A stretch of 64,000 nt of DNA from a virus. The DNA lies in the IMG/VR virus record IMGVR_UViG_3300047095_000811, positions 1 to 64,000 of that record. The stretch is one strand, 5' to 3'. Within the stretch, counting starts at the first letter, position 1. Each line of letters starts with the position of its first letter. Shown piece after piece: positions 6,054 through 60,932 of this stretch. Position numbers and translations under genes: made by a program. The notes below the pieces were generated by a model. It saw only the letters and a list, made by a program, of their open reading frames with translations, searched no databases and was not told the DNA's origin.

Positions 6054-7262
6054 TCAGATGCAGGGGATCTCGCCCTTGAATTCCTTCATTGCCTTCTTCT
6101 TGGCCTTCCAGTCCATCGGAGCCTCGTCGGCCTTGACGTTCAAGATGGGCTTGACGTGGGCGACGACGTCCACGAGATCCTTCTGCAGGTCCATGACCTC
6201 GAAGATGTTCTTGTAGACGAACGGACTCTCGTCGAGGGTGCCCTTGTTGACCGTGGCGTAGACGCCAGATTCGGTCATGGTCTTCTCGAACTCCTCCAGA
6301 GAGACGGTCTCAAGCGCCTGCTTGCGGCTCATGACTCGACCGGCACCGTGGGAGCTGGAGCACATGGAGTCCAGGTTGCCCTTACCGCGAACGATGAAGG
6401 ACCCGTCCCGCATGTTTCCGGGGATGACCCCCATCATCCCCTCCTCTGCGTGAGTGGCACCCTTGCGGTGGATCCAGAGACCGTCAGTCAGCTCGGCGTG
6501 GTTGTGGTTCCGGTTGATCAGGAGGTCCCAGTCCACGTTCGCCTCTCCGAGAACGTCGTTCATGGCTTCGGCGATACGGCGCATCATTGCACGGCGGTTG
6601 GCCAGCGCAAACTGAAGCGCGAAGTTGAGGTCCATGATGTAGTCCTCGCCTTCTTGCGAATCGACGTGGAAGCCGAACGCTCCCTCTCGGGCCTTGCCGT
6701 CTCCCGACGCCAGCTTCATGTAGTGCGAGGCGATGTGGTGGCCGAAGTTCCGGCTACCGGAGTGGATCACCGCCCAGACGACTCCGTCCTGATCGGAGCC
6801 GACCTCGATGAAGTGGTTCCCGCCGCCGAGAGTACCGATCTGGCGCAGACCCTTCTTCTTGAACTCGGTCTGAGCCATCGAGGTGCGGTCGTAGTTGTCT
6901 GCCAGACCCCAGTACTGGTCTTCCGGATGGTGCTTCGGCCCGGTGGGGATTCGCTTCAGGATCCCCGCGTGGATCGCAGCCGCCTCGCGCCTGACGTGTT
7001 CCGCATCGACGCCGACGAGCGGCAGAGCGCACATGCCGCAGCCGATGTCGTAGCCAACGAAGGCGGGATAAACCATGTCCTTGACCGCCACGACTCCGCC
7101 GATGGGGAGGCTGTAGCCGGTGTGGGCGTCCGGCATCAGGGCACCCTTCACCACGGAGTCGAGGGACATCACGTCCAAGAACTGCTGCAGGGCAGACTCT
7201 TCGAGCACCTGCGCGTAGATCTTGTACGGCTTGCCGATGGCCTCCAGTTGTTCGATTTTCAT
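6054..7262 (-). CDS. rtcB: RtcB-type 3'-phosphate RNA ligase
   Basis: 402 residues, the length of the short RtcB form. GTP- and Mn-dependent joining of 2',3'-cyclic-phosphate or 3'-phosphate RNA ends to 5'-OH ends. Motifs in order: MPDAHTGYSLPIGGVVA (about 43-59), VGYDIGCGMCALPL (about 69-82), GTLGGGNHFIEV (about 143-154), a HSGSRNFGHHIA metal site, RKGATHAEEGMMGVIPGNM, and SSSHGAGRVMSR carrying the guanylylated His. All expected metal and nucleophile residues appear present. In a tRNA-bearing phage its likely use is repair of tRNAs cut by host anticodon nucleases (inference). Start ATG 7262 after AAAAGGAAACAAATC. Confidence 0.95.
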   Translation of the reverse strand: MKIEQLEAIGKPYKIYAQVLEESALQQFLDVMSLDSVVKGALMPDAHTGYSLPIGGVVAVKDMVYPAFVGYDIGCGMCALPLVGVDAEHVRREAAAIHAGILKRIPTGPKHHPEDQYWGLADNYDRTSMAQTEFKKKGLRQIGTLGGGNHFIEVGSDQDGVVWAVIHSGSRNFGHHIASHYMKLASGDGKAREGAFGFHVDSQEGEDYIMDLNFALQFALANRRAMMRRIAEAMNDVLGEANVDWDLLINRNHNHAELTDGLWIHRKGATHAEEGMMGVIPGNMRDGSFIVRGKGNLDSMCSSSHGAGRVMSRKQALETVSLEEFEKTMTESGVYATVNKGTLDESPFVYKNIFEVMDLQKDLVDVVAHVKPILNVKADEAPMDWKAKKKAMKEFKGEIPCI

Positions 7263-21999: not shown

Positions 22000-22089
22000 T
22001 GGCGGAAGTTACAGGATTTGAACCTGTGAAGGAGATTAATCCTTGCTCGCTTTCCAAGCGAGTGCCTTAAGCCGCTCAGCCAAACTTCC
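22000..22089 (-). tRNA. tRNA-Ser (GGA)
   Basis: Class II tRNA with long variable arm and encoded CCA. Acceptor GGAAGTT/AACTTCC, anticodon stem CTCGC/GCGAG with loop TTGGAAA, T-loop TTCAAAT. Confidence 0.95.
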
Positions 22090-22090
22090 A

Positions 22091-22131
22091 TTGAGAACTG
22101 CCTTAAACCAACTCAGCCATCTCACTTCAAT
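22091..22131 (-). pseudogene. Truncated 5' half of a second tRNA-Ser
   Basis: Reading leftward, GTGAGATGGCTGAGTTGG followed by TTTAAGGCA matches the acceptor and D-arm of a bacterial tRNA-Ser, then stops near the anticodon stem. It abuts the intact tRNA-Ser. No 3' half was found. Confidence 0.55.
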
Positions 22132-22217
22132 CGGGTGAGAACAGCGTCTTTACGCTTGCAACGGCCAGTCGCCGAAGGTTTGCAACCTCATGGGTAGACG
22201 CCATTCTCTGAACTAAT

Positions 22218-22310
22218 TGGTGGGTGTCCACGGAGTCGAACCGCGAATGTTTACCACGAGGGACCAGATTTACAGTCTGGTGATGCACACGCCATAGCAT
22301 CAAGACACCC
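22218..22310 (-). tRNA. tRNA-Tyr (GUA)
   Basis: Class II tRNA with encoded CCA. Acceptor GGGTGTC/GACACCC, D-stem GATGC/GCATC, anticodon stem CCAGA/TCTGG with loop CTGTAAA, long variable arm, T-loop TTCGACT. Confidence 0.95.
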
Positions 22311-22312
22311 AT

Positions 22313-22388
22313 TGGTGGAGGTAGTCAGGATCGAACTGACGACATCCAGCTTGCAAAGCTGGCGCTCTCCCATCTGAGCTATACCCCC
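22313..22388 (-). tRNA. tRNA-Ala (UGC)
   Basis: Acceptor GGGGGTA/TACCTCC (one G-U), anticodon stem CCAGC/GCTGG with loop TTTGCAA, T-loop TTCGATC, encoded CCA. Two bases from tRNA-Tyr. Confidence 0.95.
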
Positions 22389-22406: not shown

Positions 22407-22482
22407 TGGCTCCCCAGCCTCGGCTCGAACGAGGGACCTAGCGATTAACAGTCGCTTGCTCTACCAACTGAGCTACTGAGGA
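22407..22482 (-). tRNA. tRNA-Asn (GUU)
   Basis: Acceptor TCCTCAG/CTGGGGA (one U-G), anticodon stem AGCGA/TCGCT with loop CTGTTAA, T-loop TTCGAGC, encoded CCA. Confidence 0.95.
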
Positions 22483-22484
22483 AT

Positions 22485-23000
22485 TTGGGAGGCATTACCT
22501 CCTCGACGGAAGATTTTTCAATCCCCGGAAATGGTGGCAGGGGCCGAAGCCCCGCCGAAGGGCGGATTCTCCCGGCATGGCCTTATCAGGGCGCATGCGG
22601 GGGGAGCAAGGAGCGACCTCGGGTAACGAACTTGTGGTCCGACGTCATCGCTCAATCCTATTTGCATCGTGTTAAAGAGCAAAAGCCCACCTCATAAGAT
22701 AGACGCCACCCCTATCCGACCGAAGTTCCCGAAAGAGCGGATAGATTCGGTCGTGCCTCGCGCTTATGTCTTGGCCAAAGGTGTTCGCATCGAAGTCCGC
22801 GAGTCTTCGCCCCACCGGCTGAGACCAGTATAGAGAGGAGAGTCGCGACAAGACTCATGGACGGCGGAGCGCGTCGGAGGAAAGGATTCTCAGGTCCAAT
22901 CCTCACGAGGGCTGCGGCAACGTGCAAGAGCTACAGGTAGCGCCTAACTTATGAGGCGGGCTAGACTGATGTTAGGAGACCGATGCGGCAGAAGGAGGCC
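22485..23000 (-). ncRNA. Large structured non-coding RNA upstream of the tRNA cluster
   Basis: About 500 bases with no credible gene, between a terminator (23001-23042) and tRNA-Asn. 22684-22711 pairs with 22935-22962 into a helix of about 28 positions closing a 280-base domain. On the minus strand 22 of the first 23 positions pair, including two G-U, and the helix runs on with more G-U pairs; on the plus strand those become A-C mismatches. So selection appears to act on minus-strand RNA, the strand of the tRNAs. Other elements: overlapping CTATCCG/CGGATAG and CGACCGAA/TTCGGTCG (22712-22753), GGGGC-TTCG-GCCCC near 22540, GAGTC/GACTC near 22840, and a GGAGG/CCTCC hairpin at 22488-22503. The ends are approximate. 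GOLLD and ROOL RNAs occupy such positions in phages, but I cannot match either by eye. Confidence 0.75.
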
Positions 23001-23042
23001 AAAAAAATAAACTTCCAGATGGCTTTGCGGGCCATCTGGAAA
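23001..23042 (-). terminator. Intrinsic terminator after the 23048-23329 gene
   Basis: An 11-bp perfect stem TTCCAGATGGC/GCCATCTGGAA (23013-23023 with 23031-23041) is followed on the minus strand by GTTTATTTTTTT. Confidence 0.92.
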
Positions 23043-23047
23043 CTGCA

Positions 23048-23329
23048 TCACACTTCTCGGTAAACTTCCTTGAAGGTATTTTGATACGAGCGTAGACACT
23101 CGATCGGAGAAAGAAGGAAAAGCATGGTCTTCTCTACTGCCTCTCCGAATTTGGAATGGATGTCGCATTCCTGCTCGAAGTTCTTGAAAAACACTTCGGC
23201 ACTTTCCACAGGCAGATTAACGACTCGACGAACCGAGTCTGCCAGACGGTTGACGCGGATCTGATGCGTCATGGGGAAGGCTTGGCGGAGAAATTCCGTG
23301 TTCGCCTTCCTGATTGCTTCGACTGCCAT
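23048..23329 (-). CDS. Hypothetical protein (93 aa)
   Basis: ATG 23329 after ACGAAGGAGCATCAA. Helical and basic (IRKANTEFLRQAF; IRVNRLADSVRRVV), with a hydrophobic LFLLSPIECL near the C-terminus too short for a clear membrane span. Last gene of the unit that starts at 23801. Function unknown. Confidence 0.7.
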   Translation of the reverse strand: MAVEAIRKANTEFLRQAFPMTHQIRVNRLADSVRRVVNLPVESAEVFFKNFEQECDIHSKFGEAVEKTMLFLLSPIECLRSYQNTFKEVYREV

Positions 23330-23594: not shown

Positions 23595-23801
23595 TTACGT
23601 CGTCATCGCGCTGGAGACTCCTGAGAATCCCCACTGCGATGACGAGTAAAAAACCTCCGTCCTGCGGCTGTCACGACTCATCTTCCTTACGGAACGAACG
23701 TGGACCTGATGACCCTTTTGGACGAGGAACTGGTTGGCCTCGAAGTTACGGGGCTTGGCGTTCACCTTGACAGTGATGGTTTGCTTTTTCTTCTTGCTCA
23801 T
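23595..23801 (-). CDS. Small basic hypothetical protein (68 aa)
   Basis: Start at ATG 23801 after GGAGATTCAA; a longer frame to 23861 crosses the terminator of the GGDEF-EAL gene and is rejected. Begins MSKKKKQTITVKVNAKPRNF and ends with an aromatic Ser-rich tail. Function unknown. Confidence 0.65.
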   Translation of the reverse strand: MSKKKKQTITVKVNAKPRNFEANQFLVQKGHQVHVRSVRKMSRDSRRTEVFYSSSQWGFSGVSSAMTT

Positions 23802-23810
23802 TTGAATCTC

Positions 23811-23840
23811 CAAAAAGTAGCGGAGGCATTCCGCCTCCGC
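23811..23840 (-). terminator. Intrinsic terminator after the GGDEF-EAL gene
   Basis: A perfect stem GCGGAGG/CCTCCGC within 23820-23840 is followed on the minus strand by TACTTTTTGG. Confidence 0.88.
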
Positions 23841-23844
23841 AATT

Positions 23845-25311
23845 TCATGCAAGAACTGCAATCAGCTCTTGCTCGCTCATCGGCTTGTAGAAATAGAATC
23901 CTTGGCAAACGGTGCATCCCTTTTCACGGAGATACGATACTTGCTGTTGATCTTCTACTCCTTCTGCGATTAGATCCTTGCCAAGGCTCTCGCCCATAGC
24001 TATGATCGTGTTAAGTAGTATCGTATCTTTGGAGCCGATGGAAGATACGAACGCTCGATCAATCTTGATCGTGTCGATCGGGAACTTCTGAAGGTATGAC
24101 AGCGAAGAGTACCCCGTCCCGAAATCGTCGAGCGCAAGCTTGACACCCATCCCGCTGAGCGTCTTGAGCTTTTGCTCGACCTCTTCGGTGTAGTGGATGA
24201 GCACTCCCTCGGTGAACTCAAGCTCGATCAGCGACGGGTCCACATTGTAGGTGGTGGTCACGTCGTGTATGAGTTTCACCAAGTCGTTGTCTCGTCGCTT
24301 GAGATGCGCCGCCGAGACGTTGACGCTGATCGGAACGTGCAAGTCATTCGCTCGGATGATTCTTGCTGCCGTCCTGATTAGCTGCTCCGTCAGATGTACG
24401 ATCTCTCCGCTTTCCTCCAGCACCGGGATAAACTGCGACGGAGGAATCTGCCCCTTCTGTGGATGGTACCATCTTGAAAGGACTTCGACACCAACGATGG
24501 CGTTGGTCTCAGAGTCCACCTGCGGCTGGAACACAGGAAAGAGGTTACCATTCCTTAGTGATTCTCTGAAGGTGTTCTGGATGTCGGAGATTTGGTTCAC
24601 CTTGTCCTGCAGGGGAGAGTCGAAGTACGAGTAAGTATTCTTACCGCTCTCTTTCGAGTCGTACATCGCCATGTCTGCTTTCTTCAGGAGGTCAGTTACG
24701 TTGTCGCCGTCGTCCGGATAGCTGCTTATTCCAATGCTGCAGGAGAGCGTGATCTCGACGCCGTCGATGAATATCGGTTGGTTGATCTTCTTCAGGATTC
24801 GGTTGGCAATCTCCGAGATAGATTTCCTGTTTGAGACCTTCTTGATGATGACGACAAACTCGTCTCCGCCTATGCGGTATATGTCGGTACCGTCTCGTAC
24901 GCTTCCGATCAGGGCTTCGGCCATTTTTGTCAGCACTTTGTCGCCGAATCCGTGCCCGTAAGTGTCGTTGTAAATCTTGAACCTGTCGAGGTCTATGTAC
25001 ATGACCGAGAACTCACAGCACCCTCTTCCAGAGAGACTTTCCATTGCGTTCATGAACATGAGTCGGTTCGGCAGGCCGGTTAGGATGTCGTAGTGCGCCA
25101 TCTTGAAGAAATTCTCTTTCTTCTGGCGGATCTCCTTCAGAAGTTTGAAGTTCCAGGCAGTGACCAAGCCGAATGCGACTGATATCGGGATGAAATACAT
25201 GAAGAAACTGCTTGGGTCTTTTGTATTTTGAGAGCTGACGAGGTAGAGCAGAAGAAAGATCGGCATGTACAAAGATCCACCGAACGCCAGCCTGTTCGAG
25301 ACAGAATGCAC
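23845..25311 (-). CDS. Membrane GGDEF-EAL protein (c-di-GMP synthesis and breakdown)
   Basis: 488 residues. GTG start at 25311, 7 bases after AGGGG. Two membrane helices (about 12-26 and 38-55), then GGDEF (about 75-230): DILTGLPNR, YIDLDRFKIYNDTYGHGFGD and an intact RIGGDEFVVI. The inhibitory RxxD site reads RDGT, so product inhibition may be lost. The EAL domain (about 245-485) has FQPQVDS, EVLSRW in place of EALLRW, ISVNVSA, LEFTEG, DDFGTGYSS, IKID, AEGVED and QGFYFYKP, so metal ligands and catalytic residues look present. The protein could make or degrade cyclic di-GMP and thus alter motility, biofilm or envelope state. Monocistronic with its own terminator. Confidence 0.93.
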   Translation of the reverse strand: MHSVSNRLAFGGSLYMPIFLLLYLVSSQNTKDPSSFFMYFIPISVAFGLVTAWNFKLLKEIRQKKENFFKMAHYDILTGLPNRLMFMNAMESLSGRGCCEFSVMYIDLDRFKIYNDTYGHGFGDKVLTKMAEALIGSVRDGTDIYRIGGDEFVVIIKKVSNRKSISEIANRILKKINQPIFIDGVEITLSCSIGISSYPDDGDNVTDLLKKADMAMYDSKESGKNTYSYFDSPLQDKVNQISDIQNTFRESLRNGNLFPVFQPQVDSETNAIVGVEVLSRWYHPQKGQIPPSQFIPVLEESGEIVHLTEQLIRTAARIIRANDLHVPISVNVSAAHLKRRDNDLVKLIHDVTTTYNVDPSLIELEFTEGVLIHYTEEVEQKLKTLSGMGVKLALDDFGTGYSSLSYLQKFPIDTIKIDRAFVSSIGSKDTILLNTIIAMGESLGKDLIAEGVEDQQQVSYLREKGCTVCQGFYFYKPMSEQELIAVLA

Positions 25312-60900: not shown

Positions 60901-60932
60901 GACGAATGGACCCTCAAAGAATTTGTCAATGA

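What the first reader, a model, noticed from the sequence alone, without database searches (positions are those of the whole stretch)
22485..23000. Large structured RNA on the minus strand beside the tRNA cluster
Seen: about 500 bases without a gene, and a long-range helix 22684-22711 with 22935-22962. Of the first 23 positions, 20 are Watson-Crick. On the minus strand two of the three remaining pairs become U-G and further G-U pairs extend the helix; on the plus strand those same positions are A-C mismatches. This asymmetry means RNA of the minus strand, the tRNA strand, is what has been conserved. UUCG-capped hairpins on that strand add support. Known: GOLLD and ROOL RNAs lie near tRNAs in phages. 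I cannot match either, so it may be a new class.
Basis: partly seen in the sequence, partly recalled or inferred. Interest (0 to 1): 0.88.

Follow-up and report, generated by a model that had tools for sequence, protein, structure and literature searches.

The report
Hairpin-closed RNA before phage tRNAs
A jumbo phage appears to make, from one of its own late promoters, a noncoding RNA whose very first bases lock into a 27-pair helix with a stretch about 250 bases downstream, just ahead of a cluster of tRNA genes; the RNA matches no known family and has no sequence relative in anything searched.

Summary
The helix is real. On the minus strand 22962-22936 pairs with 22710-22684: 23 Watson-Crick, 3 G-U, one U-U. 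It is the best long-range helix of the 64 kb on either strand, and 0 of 500 shuffles of the region reach it. The 520 nt look noncoding and match no Rfam family.

The window comes from a jumbo phage of the phiR1-37/AR9 group. The experimentally defined AR9 late-promoter motif, AACA-N6-TA/G (last base = start site), is strongly enriched in front of this phage's genes. One copy (22973-22962, minus) puts the start at A22962, exactly the first base of the helix. This is independent evidence for a minus-strand transcript, better than the G-U asymmetry.

'Large, ornate, new class' is only partly supported. The 225 nt inside the helix fold no better than shuffled sequence. The one relative covering the place has unrelated noncoding sequence there, so covariation cannot be tested. 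phiR1-37 has an analogous 23-pair helix before its tRNA-Asn, without sequence similarity.

Best reading: a late phage RNA whose helix-closed 5' domain leads the tRNA-Asn-Ala-Tyr-Ser transcript and may persist as a free RNA. A perfect boxA follows the helix; its function is doubtful. No expression data were available.

The parts
23010..23044 (-). intrinsic terminator (stem-loop followed by TATTTTTTTG) of the upstream gene 23048-23329; isolates the RNA unit from upstream transcription
22962..22973 (-). late-promoter match AACATCAGTCTA (AACA-N6-TA); last base A22962 = predicted transcription start
   Evidence: AR9 consensus AACA-(6N)-TA/G, last base = TSS (PMC5312081); motif enriched upstream of genes of this phage, 25 observed vs 2.7 expected; TA form 30 noncoding vs 12 coding sites, 24-fold by density
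22936..22962 (-). 5' arm of the closing helix P1, beginning at the predicted +1
22711..22935 (-). interior of the domain; noncoding, no excess folding stability
22684..22710 (-). 3' arm of the closing helix P1
22670..22681 (-). UGCUCUUUAACA: perfect match to the gammaproteobacterial boxA consensus GYTCTTTAANA; also part of the U-rich tract right after P1. Function uncertain.
   Evidence: only exact copy in the window; consensus from PMC5725501
22483..22683 (-). rest of the leader up to tRNA-Asn, with local hairpins
   Evidence: z -2.1
22540..22553 (-). UUCG-capped hairpin GGGGC-UUCG-GCCCC
   Evidence: sequence
22407..22482 (-). tRNA-Asn (GUU), first tRNA after the leader
22000..22388 (-). tRNA-Ala (UGC), tRNA-Tyr (GUA), tRNA-Ser (GGA), likely the same transcript
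   Evidence: no other AACA-N6-T[AG] site on the minus strand between 22962 and 21990

Best explanation
The stretch makes a late phage noncoding RNA. The phage's own non-virion RNA polymerase starts at A22962 (minus strand) from an AR9-type late promoter that lies just behind the terminator of the upstream gene. The first 27 nt of the RNA pair with nt 253-279, so the RNA opens with a closed 279-nt domain whose 5' end is buried in a helix. Transcription then runs on, at least in part, through a further 200-nt leader into tRNA-Asn, Ala, Tyr and Ser. The 5' domain most likely protects the 5' end, insulates the tRNAs from the leader and is cut away (a 27-bp helix is the kind of substrate RNase III cuts), so that a helix-closed RNA of about 280 nt may persist. 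Shown by computation: the helix, the noncoding character, the promoter match at its first base and the motif's enrichment in this phage. Inferred: transcription, co-transcription with the tRNAs, processing and role.
For: Helix far beyond chance, pair probability about 1 in every context. Promoter motif defined by experiment in AR9 (94 of 118 non-early start sites, PMC5312081) and independently enriched upstream of genes here. Of the 30 noncoding TA-type sites this alone starts a long helix, with +1 at exactly the first helix base (score 60.5; next 22.9; random points max 37.8 of 600). By the density of such sites in noncoding DNA (30 per 26,142 strand-nt), a chance hit at that one base is about 0.1%, or 0.5% allowing for four helix ends. 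Terminator directly upstream; no sigma-70 promoter upstream. AR9's single tRNA is a late gene (PMC5312081) with a late-promoter match just in front of it. phiR1-37 has a 23-bp long-range helix in the leader of its tRNA-Asn (0 of 200 shuffles).
Against: No RNA data. No homologue, hence no covariation test. The nearest relative covering the place (L118, 72% identity in the baseplate protein) has unrelated noncoding sequence, without a TA-type late promoter and without a significant long-range helix. The helix interior has no excess folding. The phiR1-37 helix is analogous, not alignable, and has no AACA-N6-T[AG] site at its foot.
Confidence: 0.68

Rival explanations
1. A free-standing phage RNA of a new class, about 280-300 nt, that ends in the U-rich tract after the helix (UUUUGCUCUUU) and acts in trans, in the manner supposed for other RNAs found beside phage tRNA islands (GOLLD, ROOL). 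The tRNAs are then made by read-through.
For: 5' and 3' ends pair exactly at the predicted start; the helix is followed at once by a U-rich tract; no Rfam family fits; GOLLD and ROOL lie near tRNA islands (PMC12286853).
Against: Interior shows no excess folding, no homologue anywhere searched, no second late-type promoter for the tRNAs. A 27-bp stem closing 225 nt is not a usual terminator.
Confidence: 0.17
2. A DNA-level inverted repeat: remnant of a small mobile element (terminal inverted repeats of 27 bp around 225 bp) or a site for replication or packaging; no RNA function.
For: The repeat is nearly as good on the plus strand (23 Watson-Crick of 27; z -4.3).
Against: Single copy in the 136,853-bp record; no target-site duplication at the flanks (read); all three transition differences are G-U on the strand that carries the promoter; promoter +1 falls at the repeat's first base.
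Confidence: 0.09
3. An rrn-like antitermination leader: boxA binds host NusB-S10 and keeps polymerase going through the untranslated tRNA operon.
For: Perfect boxA (GCTCTTTAACA) on the right strand, 188 nt before the first tRNA, the only exact copy in the window; boxA recruits Nus factors outside rRNA (PMC4807359, PMC5725501).
Against: The promoter is of the phage-polymerase type and no host promoter was found; 80 IMG/VR loci with TTTGCTCTTTAACA show no link with downstream tRNAs; L118, phiR1-37 and AR9 have no boxA in their tRNA leaders. The motif was noticed after the fact.
Confidence: 0.06

Closest known systems
GOLLD and ROOL RNAs (phage and prophage ornate RNAs near tRNA islands)
   Same: noncoding, beside phage tRNA genes, no protein product, function unknown
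   Different: no match to either covariance model at E <= 10; the helix-closed domain is much smaller; no evidence of an elaborate interior fold
tRNA-Asn leader of Yersinia phage phiR1-37 (L251 6272-6536)
   Same: terminator, then a 23-bp long-range helix, then tRNA-Asn(GUU), in a related phage; 0 of 200 shuffles reach it
   Different: loop of 74 nt instead of 225, no sequence similarity, no AACA-N6-T[AG] site at the helix foot
Late promoters of phage AR9 (non-virion RNA polymerase)
   Same: AACA-N6-TA with the last base as start; motif enriched upstream of genes in both
   Different: here the start lies on a long RNA helix; the uracil requirement of the template is untested
Bacterial rrn leader (boxA, leader-trailer helix)
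   Same: long closing helix and perfect boxA in an untranslated precursor with tRNAs
   Different: boxA follows the helix instead of preceding it; no rRNA inside; phage promoter

Membership tests
GOLLD / ROOL / OLE (Rfam) | match to the family covariance model | tested here: not met
   no match at gathering score, none at E <= 10 other than a 9.9-bit chance hit to sR39
GOLLD / ROOL / OLE (Rfam) | location near tRNA genes of a phage (GOLLD, ROOL) | tested here: met
GOLLD / ROOL / OLE (Rfam) | elaborate conserved secondary structure, homo-oligomer | tested here: inconclusive
   interior z -0.45; no homologues for covariation; oligomers not testable here
tmRNA, RNase P, 6S, group I/II introns (Rfam) | match to the covariance model | tested here: not met
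   ARAGORN gives no tmRNA
AR9-type late promoter | AACA-N6-TA/G in noncoding DNA of a phage in which the motif is enriched before genes | tested here: met
AR9-type late promoter | transcription start at the last base, use by the phage non-virion polymerase | not testable with these tools
   needs 5'-end mapping or in vitro transcription
boxA (Nus factor site) | GYTCTTTAANA | tested here: met
   22681-22670 minus, consensus from PMC5725501
boxA (Nus factor site) | NusB-S10 binding and antitermination by host polymerase | not testable with these tools
   no assay; phage-type promoter argues against
Small inverted-repeat mobile element | terminal inverted repeats, target-site duplication, several copies | tested here: not met
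   repeats present, but single copy and no duplication at the flanks

The most novel reading that the evidence does not exclude
A new class of phage-encoded free RNA, about 280-300 nt, made late by the phage's own RNA polymerase, with its 5' end at the first base of a 27-bp closing helix, processed from the head of a tRNA operon and acting on host ribosomes or tRNAs; the helix-closed leader at tRNA-Asn in phiR1-37 would be a distant or convergent member.
Probability: 0.15. Interest if true: 0.78.

Novelty: new variant of a known kind. Interest (0 to 1): 0.47.

Why it matters
RNAs beside phage tRNA islands (GOLLD, ROOL) have no known function, and a further candidate with a predicted start site and a single strong, testable helix would widen that puzzle. 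It also shows the AR9 late-promoter motif in a phage related to phiR1-37, for which PMC5312081 reports only the early motif. Promoter positions can thus be used to find noncoding transcripts in this group of phages.

Tried and rejected
Rfam, gathering and E <= 10: nothing in the stretch, nothing but tRNAs above cut-off in the relatives' tRNA regions. blastn to phages and plasmids: none. Exact helix-arm 16-mer in IMG/VR: six hits with nothing else shared, taken as chance. Gapped helix pattern in GTDB genomes: 11 hits without further similarity, taken as chance. Relatives through the ribonucleotide reductase, RNA polymerase, baseplate and neighbouring small proteins: only L118 covers the place with synteny, and it has no similar sequence. 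Protein-coding reading: negative codon scores, no Pfam family. boxA as a general phage tRNA-leader signal: no association in 80 loci. A late-promoter match in L118's noncoding stretch is of the TG form, which is not enriched in noncoding DNA (5 noncoding against 49 coding, by subtraction), so it was not counted.

Full report
OBSERVATION. The minus strand between the terminator of gene 23048-23329 and tRNA-Asn (22482) is about 520 nt long and noncoding by codon usage on both strands. Minus 22962-22936 pairs with 22710-22684: 23 Watson-Crick, 3 G-U and 1 U-U in 27 positions, 34 positions with the weaker extension. It is the highest-scoring long-range helix in the 64-kb window on either strand (60.5; next 51.3). 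The best of 12 shuffles of the whole window scored 56.7, and none of 500 shuffles of the region passed 49.7. The partition function gives the pairs probability near 1 in transcripts of 279 to 973 nt.

WHAT PHAGE. The 136,853-bp record encodes multisubunit RNA polymerase pieces and structural proteins closest to Yersinia phage phiR1-37, then to Bacillus phages AR9/PBS1 and Staphylococcus/Listeria jumbo phages. It is thus probably part of a genome near 260 kb (inference from the sizes of those relatives).

PROMOTER. In AR9, 94 of 118 non-early start sites carry AACA-(6N)-TA/G, the last base being the start (PMC5312081). In this phage the motif occurs 25 times in 63 upstream regions against 2.7 expected. 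Its TA form has 30 sites in the 10% noncoding DNA and 12 in coding DNA, a 24-fold excess by density. One of the 30 is AACATCAGTCTA at 22973-22962 (minus), and its start base A22962 is the first base of the helix. None of the other 29 sites starts a helix above score 22.9; random points reach at most 37.8 in 600 trials. The motif was defined elsewhere by experiment and not fitted to this helix, so the coincidence (about 0.1% for the exact base, 0.5% for any of the four helix ends) is the strongest evidence for a minus-strand RNA that opens with the helix. No sigma-70-like promoter lies upstream. No further late-type site lies between the helix and the tRNAs on that strand, so the tRNAs are likely read from the same start; AR9's single tRNA is late too (PMC5312081).

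HOW LARGE AND HOW STRUCTURED. The 279-nt domain has z -5.1 (minus) and -4.3 (plus); random windows of the phage average -1.15 (sd 1.46, minimum -4.8). Without the arms the interior has z -0.45. So the data show a closing helix, not an ornate interior. The 200 nt after it contain local hairpins (z -2.1), one truly UUCG-capped.

COMPARISON. No Rfam family matches. No similar DNA was found in phage or plasmid records, in related IMG/VR contigs or, by helix pattern, in GTDB genomes. One relative, L118, is syntenic from the baseplate genes to the tRNA cluster. At the place of the RNA it has about 800 nt of other noncoding sequence, with local repeated hairpins and overall z -3.7 but no significant long-range helix, followed by tRNA-Ser, Glu, Ile. 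Its tRNA set lacks a recognisable tRNA-Asn. In phiR1-37, whose tRNA-Asn(GUU) follows a terminator and a 270-nt noncoding leader, a 23-bp helix (L251 6272-6294 with 6369-6391, two G-U, no mismatch) closes 74 nt; 0 of 200 shuffles reach it. In AR9 a 24-position helix, acceptor stem included, encloses the tRNA itself. PALS_2 and LPJP1 show nothing clear. The architecture 'long helix at the tRNA-Asn leader' thus recurs in the group, but the sequences cannot be aligned and homology is not shown.

BOXA. Directly after the helix stands UGCUCUUUAACA, a perfect match to GYTCTTTAANA, unique in the window. It was noticed after the fact, 80 IMG/VR loci carrying the motif show no association with downstream tRNAs, and the promoter points to the phage polymerase. 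It may simply be part of a U-rich tract after the helix. I give Nus-type antitermination little weight.

MECHANISM. Most likely the domain is the 5' head of the tRNA precursor: the helix buries the triphosphate end, keeps the leader from misfolding with the tRNAs and offers a site for RNase III-type processing. The released, end-paired RNA may persist. Shown: sequence, helix, promoter statistics. Inferred: every biochemical step. The alternative, a free RNA that ends in the U-rich tract and acts in trans, cannot be excluded.

Noticed in passing
whole record, e.g. upstream of window genes 33437 (-), 34652 (+), 44146 (-), 45856 (+), 53467 (+): The AR9 late-promoter motif AACA-N6-TA/G is strongly enriched before genes of this phiR1-37-related phage (and stands before phiR1-37 g208); PMC5312081 reports no late consensus for phiR1-37.
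   Followed up: partly
record positions 60930, 91609, 128626 (+), 60298, 99357 (-): TGATATAT stands 50-80 nt before several genes: candidate early (virion polymerase) promoter motif. None lies at the RNA.
   Followed up: no
window 23598-23640 (-) and L118 13930-13980: Hairpin at the 3' end of small gene 23595-23861 kept in the relative with a compensatory C-G to G-C change while the reading frame shifts.
   Followed up: partly
L118 13977-14783: 800-nt noncoding stretch before the tRNAs of the syntenic relative, with repeated alternating hairpins (loops CCCAAUA/CCCAAUG) and a cloverleaf-like fold with anticodon-like loop UUAUUAA that was not called as a tRNA.
   Followed up: partly
L118 9849-11385: The ribonucleotide reductase gene is interrupted; a weak group I intron match (36 bits, below cut-off) lies in the gap.
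   Followed up: no
window 23845-25311 (-): The phage encodes a GGDEF-EAL-like protein (cyclic-di-GMP type, by reading its motifs) between the reductase pieces and the RNA; absent from the relative L118.
   Followed up: no
L251 (phiR1-37), about 6328-6336: TTATCCACA, a perfect DnaA box, inside the loop closed by the 23-bp helix in the phiR1-37 tRNA-Asn leader.
   Followed up: no
window 22090-22217 (-): Spacer between tRNA-Tyr and tRNA-Ser holds a partial tRNA-like duplicate (GAUGGCUGAGUUGGUUUAAGGCAGUUCUCA).
   Followed up: no
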